Below, piece after piece: positions 45,985 to 58,554 of a DNA stretch of 64,000 bases. The DNA is taken from positions 335,635-399,634 of the forward strand of contig JAFDZW010000001.1 in assembly GCA_018266755.1 (NCBI GenBank). The letters are read 5' to 3'. Made by a program: the position numbers and the translations under genes. The notes beneath the pieces were generated by a model that worked only from the letters and a program-made list of their open reading frames with translations, did no database searches and was not told the origin of the DNA. Origin of the DNA: Bacteroidota bacterium (GTDB lineage: Bacteria > Bacteroidota > Ignavibacteria > Palsa-1295). Each line of letters starts with the position of its first letter. The first letter of the stretch is position 1.

Positions 45985-48900
45985 ATGAAGGTAGCCCGTC
46001 GCTTTACGAAAAAAGGAACCAGTGTCTTCGATCAGTTCGAATACACGATGCGCTCGAGCGTGTTGCGCAACCCCGATGGCAAGCCGATCTTCGAGATGCA
46101 CGACATCGAAGTACCGCGCCAGTGGTCGCAGGTGGCTACCGATATCCTCGCCCAGAAGTATTTCCGCAAGGCCGGCGTCCCCCAGCGCGATGCCGAAGGC
46201 AACCTCCTCATCGGTGAGGACGGCAAGCAGGTCATGGGCGCCGAGAAGTCCATCAAGCAGGTAGCTCACCGTTTGGCGGGTTGCTGGCGCTATTGGGGCG
46301 AGAAGCACGGCTATTTCTCCTCCAAGGATGATGCGCAGGCGTATTATGACGAAATGGTCTATATGATCATGCGTCAGATGGGTGCTCCGAACTCGCCGCA
46401 GTGGTTCAACACTGGCCTTGCCTGGGCATACGGCATCACCGGTCCGGCACAGGGCCACTGGTACGTCGATCCGAAGACCGGCCAGCTCACGCGTTCGAGC
46501 GACGCCTACACCCATCCGCAGCCGCACGCCTGCTTCATCCAGTCGGTGACCGACGATCTCGTCAACGAAGGCGGCATCTTCGACCTGATGACGCGCGAGG
46601 CGCGCATCTTCAAGTACGGCTCGGGCACGGGCTCGAACTTCTCTGCATTGCGTTCGGCAGGTGAAAAGCTTTCCGGCGGCGGACAGTCGAGCGGACTCAT
46701 GAGCTTCCTCAAGATATTCGACACCGCAGCAGCGGCGGTGAAGTCGGGCGGCACGACGCGTCGCGCAGCGAAGATGGTCATTCTCGACGTTGACCACCCG
46801 GATATCGAGAACTTCATCACCTGGAAGGCATCCGAAGAGCAGAAGGTCGCCGCGCTCGTGGCCGGCTCGAAGATCTGCGATCTCTTCCTGAACATGATCA
46901 TGAAGATCGCCGTCGAGGGTGGCACCGATCGCCACCTCAACCACGATCTCGATATCGCCATCAAGAAGGCGCTTGCCCGCGGCGTTGCGATGAACTACAT
47001 CGTCCGCTGCCTGCGCTTGGTCGAGATGGGCTACGACCACATCGACTTCAAGACCTTCGATACGCACTACGAAGGCGAAGCATACCAGACCGTCTCGGGA
47101 CAGAACTCGAACAACTCGGTCCGCGTCACCAACGACTTCATGAATGCGGTTGCGAACGACGAGGAGTGGCAGCTCCGCTACCGCACCAGTGGTAAGGTCG
47201 CCAAGACCGTCAAGGCATCGCACCTGTGGAACGAGATCACGCTCGCCGCATGGTCGAGCGCCGATCCGGGCATGCAGTTCGATACGACCATTAACGAGTG
47301 GCATACCTGCCCCGCAGACGGCCGCATCAACGCCAGCAACCCATGCTCCGAGTACATGTTCCTCGACGACACGGCCTGTAACCTCGCGTCGATCAACCTC
47401 GCGCACTTCCTCAACGAGGAGACCGGCGAGTTCGACATCGAAGGCTACAAGCATGCGGCGCGCATCTGGACGATCACGCTCGAGATCTCGGTGCTCATGG
47501 CGCAATTCCCGTCGCGCGAGATCGCGCAGCGTTCGTTCGATTACCGCACGCTCGGCCTCGGTTACGCGAACCTCGGTACCATCCTCATGGTGCTCGGCAT
47601 TCCGTACGATTCGCCGAAGGCGCTTGCCATTAGCGGCGCACTGACCGCCATCCTCTGCGGCGAGAGCTATGCAGCGTCGGCCGAAATGGCGCGCGACCTC
47701 GGCGCATTCCCGCGCTATGAGGCCAACAAGGAGTCGATGCTCCGCGTCATCCGCAACCACAAACTTGCTGCCTACGATGCAGCCGCCGACCGCTACGAGG
47801 GCCTGACCATCAAGCCGATGGGCATCAGCGCCGAAGAAGCGCCGGAAGATCTCCTTACTGCCGCACGCGAGTGCTGGGACCGCGCCTACGAGCTCGGCGA
47901 AGCACACGGCTTCCGCAACGCACAGGTCACCGTCATCGCGCCGACCGGCACGATCGGCCTCGTGATGGATTGCGACACCACCGGCATCGAGCCCGACTTC
48001 GCCATCGTGAAGTTCAAGAAGCTCGCCGGCGGCGGATATTTCAAGATCGTCAATCAGTCGGTCCGCAAGGCGCTCGTGCGCTTGGGCTATACCGACAAGC
48101 AGATCGAAGAGATCGAGAAGTTCTGCAAAGGCCACGGCACGCTCGTCGGCTGCCCGGCGGTCAATCGCTCGACGCTCAAGCTCAAAGGCTTCTCCGACGA
48201 GAAGATCGACGAGATCGAGAAGCAGTGCGACAACGTCTTCGATCTCCGTTTTGCGTTCAACAAGTGGACGCTCGGCGAAGACTACTGCAAGAAGCTCGGC
48301 TTCACGCTCGAGCAGATGGACGATCCGAACTTCGATATGCTCGCATCGCTCGGCTATTCGAAGGAAGAGATCTCGAAGGCCAACGATTACGTCTGCGGCA
48401 CGATGACCATCGAAGGCGCGCCGTTCCTCGCCGACGAACACCTGCCGATCTTCGATTGCGCCAACAAGTGCGGCAAGTACGGCAAGCGCTTCATCCCCTA
48501 CAATGCGCACATCCGCATGATGGCGGCCGCACAGCCGTTCATCTCGGGTGCGATCTCGAAGACGATCAATATGCCGAACGAGGCGACCGTCGAGGATATC
48601 TCGAATGCGTACACCGACTCGTGGAAGCTCATGATCAAGGCGAACGCGCTCTATCGCGACGGCTCCAAGCTGTCGCAGCCGCTCAACTCGATCAACGAAG
48701 AAGGCGACCTCGCTGAGCAGGTCCTCTTCAGCGATCCCGAGGACGAGATCAAAGAGACCGTTGGCGCTGCCGAGCTGCACCAGCTCATCAACGTGCAGGC
48801 CGAAGAGACCGGCACATGGCAGCCGCGCCGCCTGAAGCTGCCGCAGCGCCGCCGCGGATGGCTCCGCGAAGCCGTCGTCGGCGGACACAAAGTGTACCTG

Positions 48901-49533
48901 CGTACCGGCGAATACGACGACGGTGCGCTCGGTGAGATCTTTATCGATATGTACAAAGAGGGCGCAAGCTTCAAGGGACTCTTGAACTGCTTCGCCGTCT
49001 TGGCTTCGAAGGCGCTCCAGTACGGCGTGCCGCTCGAAGAGTTAGTGGATACCTTTACGTTCACCCGTTTCGAGCCCGCCGGATCGGTCCAGGGACACGA
49101 AGCGATCAAGAACGCAACATCGATCCTCGATTACGTTTTCCGTGCGCTCGGCTACGAATACCTCAATCGTACCGATTTCGTCCACGTCAAAGCGGTCGAC
49201 GAGCACAAGCACGACCACCATCACCACGCAAGCGTTGCGGCGGGGCCTGCGACTGCGCCGGTATCGGCCGTCAGCACGCAGCGCACCGAAGCGCCGAGCG
49301 AGGATGAGGTCGTCGAGCGGCTCAAGAACCAGCAGAAGTCCGAACCCGAACCGGCCATGGCCGCCGCGACCAGCGCCGCCACCGCCGCCGAAACCCGCAA
49401 ACAACAGTACCGCGAAGCCAAAACCAAAGGCTACACCGGCGAGCAATGCCCCGCCTGCGGATCGATGAGAGTCAAGCGCAACGGCGCCTGCACCCTCTGC
49501 GAAGACTGCGGCACGACCAGCGGGTGTTCGTGA
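45985..49533 (+). CDS. nrdJ: Vitamin B12-dependent (class II) ribonucleotide reductase
   Basis: 1,182 residues; reduces ribonucleotides using adenosylcobalamin, so no separate small subunit is needed. Class II hallmarks include [46 protein letters not shown] (radical/active Cys and Glu), [20 protein letters not shown], a TSCPD-like C-terminal domain ([27 protein letters not shown]), and a final zinc-ribbon CPACGS...CTLCEDCG. A linker rich in Ala and His (about 1070-1150) precedes the ribbon. ATG 45985 is well placed. The last 44 bp recur in degenerate form at 50.09 kb beyond the toxin-antitoxin genes. Confidence 0.96.
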
Positions 49534-54022: not shown

Positions 54023-54517
54023 ATGATCGATTTCATGACTGTAGTCTTCAGATCTTTCGGAATTGTAGCATTGGTGTTGTCGCTTGGCGCGTGTCGCGGC
54101 GCGAAGTTCGAGAGCGGTTCGATGGAGCCGACGATCCACCAAGGCGATGTGGTCACGATCAACCATACCGCGTACTTGAACAGCGATCCGCAGCGCTGGG
54201 ATGTCGCGGCATATGAGGACGAGGACACGCATGGCAATAGTTGGTGTCACCGGATCGTCGGTATGCCCGGGGAGACAATCGATCTGCGGGACGGCTTCGT
54301 CATTATCGATAGTGTGAAACTTGAGTATCCTGCAAAGATCGGGAAGGTGAGGTACTCCGCTCTGCCGGCCGGGACGCCGACAAAGATCCATTTGCCGTAT
54401 CTTATTCCTAAGGACTGTTATTTTGTCCTGGGTGACAATACGTCCGACGCGATCGATAGCCGCTACCTCGGCGCGATCAAGCGTTCCGATATCCGAGGGA
54501 GGATCGAAGGGAAGTAG
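54023..54517 (+). CDS. S26 signal peptidase-like lipoprotein, copy 1
   Basis: 164 residues from ATG 54023 (ATG 54035 also possible). The signal ends in a lipobox (SLGAC, Cys 24), so a lipid anchor replaces the usual transmembrane helix. Signal-peptidase boxes follow: SGSMEPT (nucleophile Ser 33), RWDVAAY, CHRIVGMPGETI and GDNTSDAIDSRYLG. In box D the general-base Lys (KRxxGLPGD) is His 76. Family role: cleaving signal peptides or T9SS-type cargo; with His at the base position this could be an ER-type-like dyad or an inactive form. A paralogue lies at 55.7 kb. Confidence 0.85.
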   Translation: MIDFMTVVFRSFGIVALVLSLGACRGAKFESGSMEPTIHQGDVVTINHTAYLNSDPQRWDVAAYEDEDTHGNSWCHRIVGMPGETIDLRDGFVIIDSVKLEYPAKIGKVRYSALPAGTPTKIHLPYLIPKDCYFVLGDNTSDAIDSRYLGAIKRSDIRGRIEGK

Positions 54518-54818
54518 GCCGCCGTTATCTGGGGCTCAAATGCCGGATCGGCACCTAACAAACCAGATGTGAGTGTTGGTGACGAATTGGCAGGGGCTCC
54601 CGAGTCGCTCGCTTTGCTCGCGGGACGGACTAAAGTCCGTCCTACTGAGTCTGGACGGACTGAGAGTCCGTCCTACTGAGTCGCTTGCTTTGCTTGCGGG
54701 ACGGACTAAAGTCCGTCCTACTGAGTCGCTCGCTTTGCTTGCGGACGGACTGAAGGAGTCCGTCCGCGTCTGATCGCGTTTCAATTCGGCTTCACGCTCA
54801 AACCGGAATCCTACTCAC
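54518..54818. other. REP-rich spacer
   Basis: A 301-bp interval between the first S26 gene and the reverse-strand lipoprotein gene. It is mostly four tandem REP-like units, described as one repeat feature; about 80 bp before them and 50 bp after show no gene. Confidence 0.6.
54605..54765. repeat. Cluster of four REP-like palindromes
   Basis: Four palindromes with arms GGACGGACT/AGTCCGTCC at 54623-54642, 54653-54673, 54699-54718 and 54743-54765, with central TAAA, TGAGA, TAAA and TGAAGG. Three are preceded by a GCTCGCTTTGCTCGCGG-type module, and most are followed by TACTGAG, giving a composite unit of about 55-60 bp. This is the densest part of a family dispersed over 54.6-58.6 kb. Confidence 0.9.
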
Positions 54819-55484
54819 TTACTTGACGGTGTACGACTTGAGCTCGACGAGATCGAGCAGGTTATCCTCGCTGATCCTGTTTGATCGATAGTGTGCCGTC
54901 CGGACCAACCCAACCCCGGGTGCGAGGTAGTCATCTGTGACTTGGGCGGTATCAAGAGGGGCAGCGGAGAAGGTCGAAAGTATCACCGTGCGGAATTGAA
55001 CGCACGTGAAGGTCCCTGCGGGAACGGTCACCTTCTTTGCGCTATCGACGATCTCGAGCGTGGTGACCTGACGAGATTGGTCGGAGTACGTTGTGTCGAG
55101 CACCTTTTGAGGGGTACCGACGAGCATAGGGTAGCGGTACCGAACGAGCGTGATCATTCCTGTGCGGCCGCTTGGCGTGTATGAGTACTGGAGGTCATTC
55201 CCGGAGAACGATTGATACGCAGAACCACTGCCGTACTTGTATGCGGTCTGTCCGTTGATCGTGACGGCGCTATCGATCGATGTGGTGTACGTCGATCGCT
55301 GACTGACCGCGCCCGTGTTCGCATCGTAGTTCGTTACCTGGTATGTCCAACTATTGCCAACGGCGAGCGGGAAGAGCGTTCGGATCGTTGTTGGTGTCGG
55401 TGCGGTCTCGGGTTGAGTCGAGCTGCTCGAGCACCCTTGTGTAATAACGAGAACAACAAGAACCAGAAGATATGTATGACGCAT
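54819..55484 (-). CDS. Hypothetical lipoprotein
   Basis: About 221 residues from the ATG at 55484; an upstream extension to 55556 is open but the signal peptide fixes the start. The lipobox is VITQGC, followed by a Ser/Thr/Pro-rich linker and a beta-rich domain (FPLAVGNSWTYQVTNYD, TVPAGTFTCVQFRTVI, DDYLAPGVGLVRTAHY). The VGNSWTY and PGVGLV phrases are typical of widespread Bacteroidota/FCB exported proteins of unknown role. REP elements lie on both sides. Confidence 0.75.
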   Translation of the reverse strand: MRHTYLLVLVVLVITQGCSSSSTQPETAPTPTTIRTLFPLAVGNSWTYQVTNYDANTGAVSQRSTYTTSIDSAVTINGQTAYKYGSGSAYQSFSGNDLQYSYTPSGRTGMITLVRYRYPMLVGTPQKVLDTTYSDQSRQVTTLEIVDSAKKVTVPAGTFTCVQFRTVILSTFSAAPLDTAQVTDDYLAPGVGLVRTAHYRSNRISEDNLLDLVELKSYTVK

Positions 55485-55594
55485 GATGGTTGAGATAGAT
55501 GAATACGTGAATGCAGTATTCAAACGGTCGACACGCTCCGTTGTTGCATCGGGCACGGTTTGTTGCCCTCGGGTACATGAGTGCAGATGCTCGC

Positions 55595-55614
55595 GGACGG
55601 ACTAAAGTCCGTCC
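55595..55614. repeat. REP-like palindrome
   Basis: GGACGGACTAAAGTCCGTCC followed by TACTGGG, preceded by a shortened TGCTCGCGG module. Same family as the 54.6-kb cluster; lies between the lipoprotein gene and the second S26 gene. Confidence 0.85.
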
Positions 55615-55682
55615 TACTGGGTGAGGCGGAGCGTATGTCACTTTTCGGATGTTGCTGAGCGAATGAACACATTAGGACAAAT

Positions 55683-56168
55683 ATGAAGAGATATCTACTG
55701 ACGATCGCGATCGGGGTTGTATTTGCTGTGGCGCTTGGGTCCTGCCGTGAGGCGAAGATTCAGAGTGGGTCGATGGAGCCGACGATCAAGGCTGGCGAAG
55801 CCGTTACCATCAACTACACTGCGTATGTAAGCGACGCGCCTGTTCGATGGGATGTGGTCGCCTTCATGAATGACCAGACGAAAGGAAAAGTGTGGTGTCA
55901 CCGTGTTGTCGGTCTGCCCGGCGAGACCATCGATATTAAGGACAGCTTCATTTTCATCAACGGGGCGAAGATGACATATCCGCAGAAGATCGCGGGCATT
56001 CGCTATGCCGCGATGGTGCCGGGAGAGCCGGCGAAGCTGCAATTACCGTACACGATTCCGGCGAACACTTACTTCGTGCTCGGCGACAACACGAACGATG
56101 CCTACGACAGTCGCTATATCGGCCCCGTTAAGCGCGATGATATTAGGGGGCGGGTAGAAGGGAAGTAG
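55683..56168 (+). CDS. S26 signal peptidase-like lipoprotein, copy 2
   Basis: 161 residues, clearly paralogous to the gene at 54.0 kb. The lipobox is ALGSC (Cys 21), the nucleophile Ser 30 lies in SGSMEPT, and box D reads CHRVVGLPGETI with His 73 where signal peptidase I has Lys; box E (GDNTNDAYDSRYIG) is intact. Both copies share the same substitution, so it is not a random error. A dispersed REP lies on each side. Function predicted only as an S26-type serine protease or a decayed one. Confidence 0.85.
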   Translation: MKRYLLTIAIGVVFAVALGSCREAKIQSGSMEPTIKAGEAVTINYTAYVSDAPVRWDVVAFMNDQTKGKVWCHRVVGLPGETIDIKDSFIFINGAKMTYPQKIAGIRYAAMVPGEPAKLQLPYTIPANTYFVLGDNTNDAYDSRYIGPVKRDDIRGRVEGK

Positions 56169-56181
56169 AGGCGGTATGGCG

Positions 56182-56237
56182 GGACGGACTAAAGTCCGTC
56201 CTACTTAAGATGATCGGACGGACAAGAGTATCCGTCC
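56182..56237. repeat. Two REP-like palindromes
   Basis: GGACGGACTAAAGTCCGTCC (56182-56201) and an imperfect GGACGGACA...TATCCGTCC copy (56216-56237). The second abuts the stop codon of the reverse-strand VOC gene, a typical REP position just after a gene. Confidence 0.8.
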
Positions 56238-56674
56238 TACTGGGTGAGTTTTTGTGCGAGGGCGATGAGGATGCCTTCGGGGCCTCGGAGGTAGCAGAGG
56301 CGATAGACGTGTTCGTACTGCACGATCTGGTCGAGGACTTCGCCGCCGTGTTTGCGCAAGCGCCCGACCATCGCGTCGATGTCGTCGACCTCGAACATGA
56401 TGCGCCGTATGCCCAGCGTGTTCGACGGTGCGTTCTGCGGTTCGGACATGACGGCCTCGGGGCGAATGTATCGTTGGAGTTCGACGCTCGCGCCTCCGCC
56501 GGGTGTCCGCATCATTGCGATATCGCTGACGGCGCCCTCGAGCCCGATGCAATGATCGACCCACGGCCCTTCGACGCGCATCTCGCCTTCGAGCACGAGG
56601 CCAAGCTCTTGAAAGAAGGCGACCATCCGTGGCAAGTCTTCGACGACAATGCCGATGTTGTCCATTCGTACCAT
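56237..56674 (-). CDS. VOC (glyoxalase-like) protein 1
   Basis: 145 residues with the beta-alpha-beta-beta-beta pattern of the vicinal oxygen chelate fold twice (VRMDNIGIVVEDLPRMVAFFQELG; GIRRIMFEVDDIDAMVGRLRKHGG). Metal-ligand positions are plausible but not decisive (MDNIG, ELQRYI, Glu in FEVDD). Members include lyases, dioxygenases and antibiotic-resistance proteins; the substrate is unknown. It lies 1 bp from the DHFR-like gene on the same strand, suggesting a two-gene unit. Confidence 0.88.
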   Translation of the reverse strand: MVRMDNIGIVVEDLPRMVAFFQELGLVLEGEMRVEGPWVDHCIGLEGAVSDIAMMRTPGGGASVELQRYIRPEAVMSEPQNAPSNTLGIRRIMFEVDDIDAMVGRLRKHGGEVLDQIVQYEHVYRLCYLRGPEGILIALAQKLTQ

Positions 56675-56675
56675 A

Positions 56676-57230
56676 TTACTTTTGTCGAGGAGTATAGTGG
56701 AGCATGATCGAACCGATCGCGAATGTCTTGGTCGCGGTCAGCGTCAGATCGACCTTTTGGTCGAGGCCTTCGAGAAATTTCAGGCCGCCGCCAACAAATG
56801 TCGGATGGATCAGCAGCCGGTACTCGTCGATCAGGCCCAGCTTCGTAAACTCGGTGATCAAGCTTCTGCTGCCGACGAGGATGTTCTTGCCCTCCTGCGC
56901 TTTGAGTGCCAGGATTTCGTCCGCCAATAGTTCATTCCTGAGTTCGGAGTTCTTCCAGCGGACCGCATCAAGCGTCCGCGAATAGACGATCTTTCTCATG
57001 CCGTCGATGAGGACGGCAAAGTCATCCTGGGCCTTGTCGCCGCTCGGGTGTACTACTTGCTCGGGCCAGAAACCTTCCATGAGCTGGTAGGTGGTCCGTC
57101 CCCAGATCATGGTATCGGCCTGGCGGAGCAGATCGTTGTAATATTCGTGAATCTCGGCGTCGACCATCCCGGCGGTATGCTGGCAATAGCCGTCAAGCGT
57201 AATATTGAAGGCAGAGATTATTTTTCGCAT
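56676..57230 (-). CDS. Dihydrofolate reductase-family (RibD C-terminal-like) protein
   Basis: 184 residues from the ATG at 57230. The N-terminus MRKIISAFNITLDGYCQ and the phrases MIWGRTTYQLM, IVYSRTLDAVRWKN, LVGSRSLITEFTKLGLIDEY and HPTFVGGGLKF are characteristic of the family (NADPH-dependent reductases of unknown substrate, not authentic FolA). Downstream is the VOC gene. A TATATTTG element lies 34 bp upstream of the start. Confidence 0.88.
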   Translation of the reverse strand: MRKIISAFNITLDGYCQHTAGMVDAEIHEYYNDLLRQADTMIWGRTTYQLMEGFWPEQVVHPSGDKAQDDFAVLIDGMRKIVYSRTLDAVRWKNSELRNELLADEILALKAQEGKNILVGSRSLITEFTKLGLIDEYRLLIHPTFVGGGLKFLEGLDQKVDLTLTATKTFAIGSIMLHYTPRQK

Positions 57231-57263
57231 GGGTGGTCGGTGTAATGGTGTTGGTATCGATAT

Positions 57264-57271
57264 CAAATATA
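57264..57271 (-). promoter_or_regulatory. Possible Bacteroidota -7 promoter element
   Basis: On the reverse strand the sequence reads TATATTTG, matching the Bacteroidota sigma-A -7 consensus TAnnTTTG, about 34 bp upstream of the DHFR-like start. No clear -33 TTG element is visible, so support is modest. Confidence 0.35.
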
Positions 57272-57282
57272 CGTGCCGACAC

Positions 57283-57319
57283 TGCTCGCTTCGCTCGCGG
57301 ACGGGCTGAGAGTCCGTCC
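57283..57319. repeat. REP-like composite unit
   Basis: A CTCGCTTCGCTCGCGG module followed by GGACGGGCTGAGAGTCCGTCC; one arm base differs from consensus. Family member upstream of the second toxin-antitoxin pair. Confidence 0.85.
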
Positions 57320-57378
57320 TGCTGATGTAGTGCACTTTTTGACATTGGGCAGGTGTTCCAAGAAAGGAGTAGAGTATT

Positions 57379-57591
57379 ATGCTACCTTCAAACGTTGCAC
57401 AGATGAATCCGTCAGAAAAGCTTCAGTTGGTCTGGGAGCTGTGGGATTCGCTTGCGAAGAATGAAAACGACATCCCGATCAGCGACGATGACCGGAGGGA
57501 GATCGAACATCGGCTTGCTCAGTATCGCGCAGGGAAACTCGAGACAATGAGTTGGGAAGAGGTCAAAGCGAGTATTCTTGAGCGGCGATGA
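57379..57591 (+). CDS. Addiction-module antitoxin (TIGR02574-like)
   Basis: 70 residues. The phrases MNPSEKLQLVWELWDSL, IPISDDDRREIEHRLAQY and SWEEVKASIL match the putative addiction module component family. It overlaps the downstream ParE-type toxin by 4 bp (ATGA) in the classic antitoxin-first order. Confidence 0.9.
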   Translation: MLPSNVAQMNPSEKLQLVWELWDSLAKNENDIPISDDDRREIEHRLAQYRAGKLETMSWEEVKASILERR

Positions 57592-57881
57592 GCAAGCGGT
57601 TGCGGCTCCTCTCTGTCGCACGAACGGATATTGCGAATGCCTTTGCATACTATGAGTCCGAGAGCAGAGGGCTCGGAGTTGTTTTCCTGCAAATTCTTGA
57701 GGGACTACTCGATCATGTCGTTGAATATCCCGAATTCTACCCGCAACGGATCGGGCAGACTCGACGAGCACTGGTACCTCGGTTTCCGTATGCCGTGTTC
57801 TACATCGTCGATGCGGAGGAGATCACAATCCTGGGCGTTCGGCATACAAAGCAAGATCCCGGCTCGATGCCAACTGCATGA
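57588..57881 (+). CDS. ParE/RelE-family toxin
   Basis: 97 residues. The ParE-type pattern is seen: ARTDIANAFAYYESESRGLGVVFLQ, LLDHVVEYPEFYPQ, RRALVPRFPYAVFYIVDAEEITILGVRHTKQDP. Paired with the upstream antitoxin by a 4-bp overlap. By family it acts on gyrase or ribosome-bound mRNA. The pair is bounded by REP-like units on both sides. Confidence 0.9.
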   Translation: MSKRLRLLSVARTDIANAFAYYESESRGLGVVFLQILEGLLDHVVEYPEFYPQRIGQTRRALVPRFPYAVFYIVDAEEITILGVRHTKQDPGSMPTA

Positions 57882-57883
57882 AC

Positions 57884-57920
57884 GGCTCGCTTCGCTCGCG
57901 GGCGGACTGAGAGTCCGTCC
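57884..57920. repeat. REP-like composite unit
   Basis: GGCTCGCTTCGCTCGCG module followed by GGGCGGACTGAGAGTCCGTCC. It begins 2 bp after the toxin stop codon. Confidence 0.85.
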
Positions 57921-58060
57921 TACTGATCTGAAATCGGGTGGCGGCCTGTACCGTGTCTGTATATTGTTCCGACGATCGATGAGCACCATTCGGCGCGCTA
58001 TCGCGGACAGACTGAGTGGGCTTGGGGTTCGGTCATTCATCCAATATACATTCTACTACT

Positions 58061-58450
58061 ATGAATCCGGTTGTACATTTTGAAATGGGCGCCCACGATA
58101 CGGCGCGGATGCAGAAGTTCTATCAGATGGCGTTCGGCTGGCAGACACAGCAGCTCGGCGAGGAGATGGGGAGCTACGTGCTCGTGACGACGACCGAGAC
58201 CGACGAGAAGGGCATGGTCAAGACGCCAGGGACGATCAACGGCGGGTTCTACAAGAAGACCGATGATGTAACGTCGCATGCGCCGTCGGTTGTGATCGCG
58301 GTGACGAATCTCGACGAGATGATGGAGAAAGTGAAAGCCGCGGGCGGCAAAATCCTCCGCGATCCCGATGACATTCCGGGCGTCGGGAAGTGGGTGTCGT
58401 TCCAAGACACCGAAGGCAACCGCGTAAGCATGCTGCAGCCGTTGATGTAG
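58061..58450 (+). CDS. VOC (glyoxalase-like) protein 2
   Basis: 129 residues from ATG 58061; an upstream extension to 58016 lacks support. The VOC fold is recognisable from NPVVHFEMGAHDTARMQKFYQMAFGW, TINGGFYKK, SVVIAVTNLDEMMEKVKAAGGKILRDPDDIPGVGKWVSFQDTEGNRVSMLQP, the last resembling the GxxxxxxDPxGN phrase of glyoxalase/bleomycin-resistance proteins. Substrate unknown. It stands alone between REP units and is not adjacent to the first VOC gene. Confidence 0.9.
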   Translation: MNPVVHFEMGAHDTARMQKFYQMAFGWQTQQLGEEMGSYVLVTTTETDEKGMVKTPGTINGGFYKKTDDVTSHAPSVVIAVTNLDEMMEKVKAAGGKILRDPDDIPGVGKWVSFQDTEGNRVSMLQPLM

Positions 58451-58467
58451 TTATTGCTGAGAGCCGG

Positions 58468-58554
58468 AGGACGGATTTTTCGTCCGTCCTCGTTCGGGAA
58501 GCAGGATGCGCCGAGAGTGCTCGCTACGCTCGCGGACGGACTGAGAGTCCGTCC
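58468..58554. repeat. Two REP-like palindromes
   Basis: AGGACGGA / TCCGTCCT around a T-rich loop (58468-58490) and GGACGGACTGAGAGTCCGTCC (58534-58554) preceded by CTCGCTACGCTCGCGG. They separate the second VOC gene from the T9SS gene and mark the right end of the REP-rich zone. Confidence 0.85.

What the first reader, a model, noticed from the sequence alone, without database searches (positions are those of the whole stretch)
54023..56168. Two S26 lipoproteins with His replacing the catalytic Lys
Both copies keep the SGSMEPT nucleophile and the GDN...DSRY box but read CHR(I/V)VG(M/L)PGE where signal peptidase I has KR..GLPGD, and both have a lipobox in place of the transmembrane anchor. The same substitution in both paralogues argues for a selected Ser-His version or a non-proteolytic role, and lipid anchoring of such a protein is unusual.
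Basis: partly seen in the sequence, partly recalled or inferred. Interest (0 to 1): 0.5.

Follow-up and report, generated by a model that had tools for sequence, protein, structure and literature searches.

The report
Lipid-anchored, probably dead signal peptidase relatives
Two neighbouring bacterial genes encode short, probably lipid-anchored relatives of signal peptidase I that have lost residues the enzyme needs, so they more likely grip peptides than cut them.

Summary
Two S26 (PF10502) proteins lie at 54023-54517 and 55683-56168, with SGSMEPT, CHR(I/V)VG(M/L)PGE and GDNT.DA.DSRY, a lipobox Cys 9 residues before the Ser, and His where E. coli signal peptidase has Lys145. The selected Ser-His reading is weak. 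The proteins belong to a small clade (6 proteins, 5 of 391 genomes sampled from the class; support 100/97) in which that position is His, His, Asn, Gln, Cys, Phe. One member also lost the Ser, and no Lys is invariant. All six carry Ala where E. coli has Ser278, the residue that steadies Lys145; 86 of 86 Lys-type rows in my pool have Ser there. The two window copies are sisters, so their shared His is inherited, not repeated. The genome has two Lys-type signal peptidases elsewhere. Best explanation: a lipid-anchored, catalytically degenerate S26 family that keeps the fold and peptide cleft and works as a peptide-binding protein, like streptococcal SipA (top by VIA-align, Z 18.7; Foldseek puts active SpsB first). 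Activity, lipidation and partner are untested. A real Ser-His(-Asp) protease in this one genome is not excluded.

The parts
54023..54517 (+). S26 lipoprotein copy A (164 aa), PF10502/TIGR02227
54083..54094 (+). lipobox L-G-A-C of copy A, Cys24, 9 residues before the Ser
   Evidence: PS51257-type pattern
54119..54121 (+). Ser33, equivalent of E. coli Ser90
54248..54250 (+). His76 at the place of catalytic Lys145
54449..54451 (+). Ala143 at the place of Ser278
55683..56168 (+). S26 lipoprotein copy B (161 aa), PF10502/TIGR02227; AlphaFold2 mean pLDDT 90.5
55734..55745 (+). lipobox L-G-S-C of copy B, Cys21, 9 residues before the Ser
55770..55772 (+). Ser30, equivalent of E. coli Ser90
55899..55901 (+). 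His73 at the place of catalytic Lys145
56100..56102 (+). Ala140 at the place of Ser278

Best explanation
The two genes encode lipid-anchored members of a small S26 family that has lost signal peptidase chemistry but kept the fold and the peptide-binding cleft. Shown from sequence: the general base (Lys145) and the Ser that positions it (Ser278) are both gone in the six members found, and one member has lost the nucleophile too; most of the motif core of boxes B to E is conserved, and the window copies differ far less at nonsynonymous than at synonymous sites. Inferred: after Lgt/LspA processing the protein hangs by a lipidated Cys about 9 residues before the old active-site Ser, where active enzymes have a transmembrane helix, most likely at the periplasmic face of the outer membrane since none of the six has Asp after the Cys (E. 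coli rule, recalled). There it binds extended peptide or protein termini in the old signal-peptide cleft without cutting them, as proposed for SipA in pilus assembly. The partner is not identified.
For: Catalytic column H,H,N,Q,C,F in the six members, amid invariant MEP, R, G, P, E, GDNT, A, DSR. Ala for Ser278 in 6 of 6, Ser in 86 of 86 Lys-type rows of the pool (the pool was chosen by similarity to the family and is not independent by descent). Ser to Ala in G002's copy. One clade, 100/97. dN 0.32, dS 2.0 between the window copies by NG86; dS is near saturation. Lipobox pattern in 4 of 6 against 0 of 80 Lys/Ser-type rows. Two Lys-type LepB genes remain elsewhere in the genome. VIA-align's best match is inactive SipA 4n31, Z 18.7, rmsd 1.9, 128 aligned, ahead of active SpsB at 17.1. 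SipA lost Ser90, Lys145 and Ser278 yet keeps the cleft and is needed for pilus assembly (PMC4049620: abstract, passages, cleft section).
Against: Ser is kept in 5 of 6 members, more than a dead enzyme needs. Gly272, which SipA lost along with Lys145, is kept in 6 of 6. Both window copies have His, which serves as base in ER-type enzymes, and the Asp and Arg of box E are kept. Ser278 is also reported to hydrogen-bond the ligand in E. coli (PMC12984324, passage), so its loss may touch binding as well as catalysis. Foldseek ranks active SpsB above SipA. Three other non-Lys rows in the pool keep Ser278, so the two losses are not tied in every lineage. Only six sequences are known. Of four orthologue loci, only G002 clearly shares neighbours with the window. 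The lipobox is poor in two members. No activity or localisation data.
Confidence: 0.6

Rival explanations
1. The two window proteins are working proteases with a Ser-His dyad or Ser-His-Asp triad reached independently on a bacterial P-type scaffold, with relatives having lost the base later.
For: Ser, His and the box E Asp are all present in both copies. ER-type and archaeal enzymes replace Lys by His and need no Lys (PMC2913515 and PMC10269814, passages). The catalytic cores of E. coli (Lys) and human SEC11A (His) are reported to have similar geometry (PMC12984324, passage). Loss of Ser278 would not matter to a His base (inference).
Against: Four of four orthologues lack His (Asn, Gln, Cys, Phe) and one lacks Ser. 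The two copies are one event by descent. They score as P-type (TIGR02227 104 and 118 bits) and fail the TIGR02228 (archaeal) cut-off (27 and 28 bits against 51.85). Ser-His geometry was not measured: no coordinates were available.
Confidence: 0.16
2. Duplicated remnant without a function, drifting after loss of catalysis.
For: Patchy: 6 proteins in 5 of 391 class genomes; not found in G001 of the same genus, a 93% complete draft; the catalytic column is free to vary.
Against: No stops inside the six, dN well below dS in the window pair, invariant motif core across two taxonomic families.
Confidence: 0.12
3. Serine hydrolase of another kind (for example a slow or self-processing activity using the retained Ser without a fixed base).
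For: Ser retained in 5 of 6; the GDN turn is invariant and is reported to position the Ser90 nucleophile in E. coli (PMC12984324, passage).
Against: Ser replaced by Ala in G002's copy while the clade's other features are kept; no conserved base.
Confidence: 0.06

Closest known systems
Streptococcus pyogenes SipA (PDB 4n31, 4k8w)
   Same: S26 fold with a small cap domain; Lys145 and Ser278 equivalents lost; for SipA, peptide cleft kept and no peptidase activity (PMC4049620, abstract and passages)
   Different: SipA has Asp for Ser, Gly for Lys and Asn for Gly272, a transmembrane anchor and a pilus/sortase gene cluster; here Ser is mostly kept, Gly272 is kept, a lipobox Cys stands before the Ser, and no sortase or pilin domain was found among 13 neighbouring ORFs scanned
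Bacterial signal peptidase I (LepB, SpsB; TIGR02227)
   Same: SxMEPT and GDN..DSR motifs, fold; passes the TIGR02227 cut-off
   Different: No Lys base, no Ser278; a lipobox Cys in 4 of 6
Staphylococcus aureus SpsA
   Same: Signal peptidase homologue described as lacking two conserved catalytic residues (PMC12445088, passages)
   Different: Not compared by sequence here; anchor recalled as transmembrane
ER-type / archaeal signal peptidase (SEC11, Sec11b; also SipW)
   Same: His at the place of the Lys, in two of six members
   Different: Window pair scores as P-type; His not conserved in the clade; fails TIGR02228 cut-off

Membership tests
Bacterial type I signal peptidase (S26A) | Passes curated family model | tested here: met
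   TIGR02227 83 to 118 bits against 47 in 6 of 6 members; PF10502 98.1 and 113.4 in the window pair
Bacterial type I signal peptidase (S26A) | Ser nucleophile in SxM | tested here: met
   window pair and 5 of 6 members; Ala in G002's copy
Bacterial type I signal peptidase (S26A) | Lys general base in box D | tested here: not met
   H,H,N,Q,C,F; Lys in 0 of 6
Bacterial type I signal peptidase (S26A) | Ser278 equivalent | tested here: not met
   Ala in 6 of 6
Bacterial type I signal peptidase (S26A) | Transmembrane anchor before the Ser | tested here: inconclusive
   a hydrophobic segment is present; lipobox pattern in 4 of 6, and 2 of 6 have a Cys with a poor lipobox; no topology predictor was run
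Bacterial type I signal peptidase (S26A) | Cleaves preproteins | not testable with these tools
   needs enzymology
ER-type / archaeal signal peptidase (S26B) | His base with archaeal family model match | tested here: not met
   TIGR02228 27 and 28 bits against 51.85 in the window pair; His in 2 of 6
SipA-like inactive S26 | S26 fold without the Ser-Lys dyad | tested here: met
   Lys absent in 6 of 6; VIA-align Z 18.7 of copy B to 4n31
SipA-like inactive S26 | Encoded with sortase and pilins | tested here: not met
   no sortase or pilin domain among 13 neighbouring ORFs scanned with Pfam (3 window ORFs, 10 ORFs of four orthologue loci); other neighbours were not scanned
Bacterial lipoprotein | Signal sequence ending in a lipobox Cys | tested here: met
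   window pair; 4 of 6 in the clade
Bacterial lipoprotein | Cys is lipidated | not testable with these tools
   needs labelling or mass spectrometry

The most novel reading that the evidence does not exclude
In this lineage a bacterial P-type signal peptidase was moved from a transmembrane anchor to a lipid anchor, sent towards the outer membrane, and in the window genome re-armed with a Ser-His-Asp triad like that of the ER enzyme, giving a lipid-anchored protease with a new job; its relatives show the same scaffold with the base lost.
Probability: 0.13. Interest if true: 0.65.

Novelty: new variant of a known kind. Interest (0 to 1): 0.38.

Why it matters
All six proteins pass the NCBI equivalog cut-off for 'signal peptidase I', so naming by model would list them as working enzymes although the catalytic base is gone. 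If the reading holds, they are an S26 pseudo-protease family outside the Gram-positive cases named here (SipA, SpsA), apparently on a lipid anchor, and a natural test of which signal peptidase residues serve catalysis and which serve peptide binding: Lys145 and Ser278 are both gone while the rest of the motif core stays.

Tried and rejected
Selection for His because both paralogues have it: rejected, the copies are sisters. A Lys elsewhere taking over in the whole family: rejected, no Lys is invariant in the six; a Lys acting in one copy alone was not tested by structure. Relationship to ER-type/archaeal enzymes: rejected on family scores of the window pair. A conserved operon partner: not found. 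Of 15 window ORFs compared with four orthologue loci, besides the two S26 genes a ribonucleotide reductase-like ORF (84%), a glycosyltransferase-like ORF (61%; both names recalled) and a weaker RibD-like match (31%, about 9 kb from the S26 gene) recur in G002; one 83-residue, 30% match appears in G023; G004 and G050 gave only the S26 genes.

Wider search: genome contigs gave 12 loci, of which two belong to the clade and are the G002 and G004 copies; the other ten fall outside it. Viral contigs gave 2, the closer one Lys-type and the second, a short match, not read. 395 genomes of the phylum gave none beyond the window genome at E 1e-25. The genome searches are samples and scored at most nine candidates in each genome listed, so members may have been missed. 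Plasmids gave 143 records, all under 60% identity and not checked residue by residue. Ser-His geometry could not be measured, because no coordinates were available. YN00 dN/dS failed and one of six NG86 pairs gave no dS; the window pair's NG86 value is quoted. Of the 80 Lys/Ser-type rows, 7 have a Cys within the stretch checked before the Ser, but none with a lipobox pattern.

Papers: nine searches; their listings show no paper on a lipoprotein S26 or on a Lys-to-His mutant of a signal peptidase. Most listed papers were not opened, and the library lacks most subscription journals. Passages of PMC13104630 were seen and were not relevant.

Full report
Observation. Two S26 ORFs lie on the + strand at 54023-54517 (copy A) and 55683-56168 (copy B), with a DUF3108-like ORF between them on the other strand. 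Both match PF10502 (98.1 and 113.4 bits, cut-off 22.9) and TIGR02227 signal peptidase I (104.3 and 118.2 bits, cut-off 47). Both read SGSMEPT, WCHR(I/V)VG(M/L)PGE and GDNT.DA.DSRY. PDB alignments put the Lys of the E. coli, SpsB, Bacillus and Enterococcus enzymes on the column of the window His. Residue numbers Ser90, Lys145, Gly272 and Ser278 follow PMC4049620 (passages).

Anchor. A lipoprotein pattern ends at Cys24 of copy A and Cys21 of copy B, nine residues before the Ser. In the clade, 4 of 6 match the pattern; the G002 and G050 copies have a Cys at the end of the hydrophobic stretch but a poor residue before it (Glu, Asn). Of 80 Lys/Ser-type rows in my pool, none matches the pattern upstream of the Ser, though 7 have a Cys in the stretch checked. 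None of the six has Asp after the Cys (and the window translations), which by the E. coli sorting rule (recalled, not tested in this phylum) points to the outer membrane.

The genome's own signal peptidases. The genome has four PF10502 matches: the two window genes and two longer genes in tandem on another contig with KRCIAVAGD and KRAVALAGD, that is, with Lys, and with a hydrophobic segment before the Ser, read by eye. So the cell probably does not need the window genes for ordinary signal peptide removal (inference).

Family. A search of 61 genomes (the window's own and 60 relatives) found orthologues in G002, G004, G050 and G023. A profile of the six (A1) searched against 391 genomes sampled from the class gave these six proteins in 5 genomes at 202 bits or more, and the next match at 88 bits. 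395 genomes of the phylum gave no further member at E 1e-25; the order has it in 3 of 13 genomes and the family of G050 in 2 of 12. Two orthologue contigs carry names: a Bacteroidota MAG and an Ignavibacteria MAG. In a tree of 95 S26 rows the six form one side of a branch (100/97) and the window copies are sisters (100/92) (bootstrap not fully settled, several long branches, among them G023's copy; two duplicate or partial rows of the window genes were left out before the build).

Catalytic residues. In the six, the Lys145 column reads His, His, Asn, Gln, Cys, Phe (2.25 bits, tied as the most variable of the box D columns listed), while Arg74, Gly77, Pro79 and Glu81 of copy B are invariant. 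The Ser90 column is Ser in five and Ala in G002's copy. The Ser278 column is Ala in all six. The pool aligned has 97 rows: 86 with Lys, all with Ser278 (six of these are cut off before the Ser90 column); eight rows for the six family members (one duplicate, one partial); and three others that lack Lys but keep Ser278 (a Lachnospiraceae MAG, G072 and G357). The pool holds hits and is neither random nor independent by descent. Ser278 is reported as needed for optimal activity of the E. coli enzyme (PMC2913515, passage) and as stabilising Lys145 (PMC4049620, passage); it is also reported to hydrogen-bond the ligand (PMC12984324, passage). Loss of Lys145 together with Ser278 is what one expects when Ser-Lys chemistry is no longer selected. 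The SipA paper reports both lost there too, plus Gly272, which this family keeps in 6 of 6.

Constraint. Between copies A and B, dN is 0.32 and dS 2.0 (NG86, 136 codons, near saturation), so the proteins appear maintained. That the conserved motif core builds the cleft is inference from the SipA and LepB structures; the cleft of the model was not inspected.

Structure. AlphaFold2 on copy B with a 15-sequence alignment gives mean pLDDT 90.5 and pTM 0.83. Foldseek lists active SpsB first and SipA fourth, with 26 chains at E 0.001 or better, all signal peptidases or SipA. VIA-align puts SipA 4n31 first (Z 18.7, rmsd 1.9, 128 aligned), then SpsB (17.1) and E. coli LepB (16.5 and lower). SipA's lead may reflect its similarly small cap domain and shows no shared function by itself.

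Neighbours. Window ORFs compared with four orthologue loci show a clearly shared locus only with G002 (ribonucleotide reductase-like ORF 84% identical, glycosyltransferase-like ORF 61%). Among ORFs near the other orthologues are an integrase in G004, a subtilase with a T9SS-tail match just under the Pfam cut-off and a TPR histidine kinase in G023, and a DUF362 protein, an AbgT transporter and a T9SS-tail protein in G050. No sortase or pilin was seen among the 13 neighbouring ORFs scanned. The partner is unknown.

Verdict. The best account is a lipid-anchored, catalytically degenerate S26 family that binds rather than cuts (0.60). A Ser-His(-Asp) enzyme in the window genome is the main rival (0.16): the residues are there, but the His is not kept in any of the four orthologues. 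It may work like SipA by anatomy; it is not shown to be a member of the SipA system, whose pilus context is missing. It should not be filed as a working signal peptidase I, since the Lys and Ser278 features fail.

Noticed in passing
window 54623-58554 (seven sites): A palindrome GGACGGACT(n)AGTCCGTCC occurs at 44 places in the genome and 0 times for the reversed control; seven are in the window, between and after the two S26 genes, so this dispersed repeat may have helped the duplication (untested).
   Followed up: partly
L052 and L068 (G072, G357): A second group of S26 proteins in the same class lacks the Lys (Gly in both; Ser replaced by Asn in one) but keeps Ser278; longer, with hydrophobic N-terminal stretches by eye; sister rows 95/63 in the tree, flagged as a possible long-branch join.
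   Followed up: partly
L039:1944-2588: A Lachnospiraceae MAG encodes an S26 protein with Ala for Ser and Arg for Lys.
   Followed up: no
L001 / L002 (G000:C5): The genome's two Lys-type signal peptidases lie in tandem next to an elongation factor 4 (lepA)-like ORF (name recalled from sequence).
   Followed up: no
window 45985-49533: A ribonucleotide reductase-like ORF is also beside the S26 gene in G002, 84% identical; enzyme name recalled from sequence, not scanned.
   Followed up: partly
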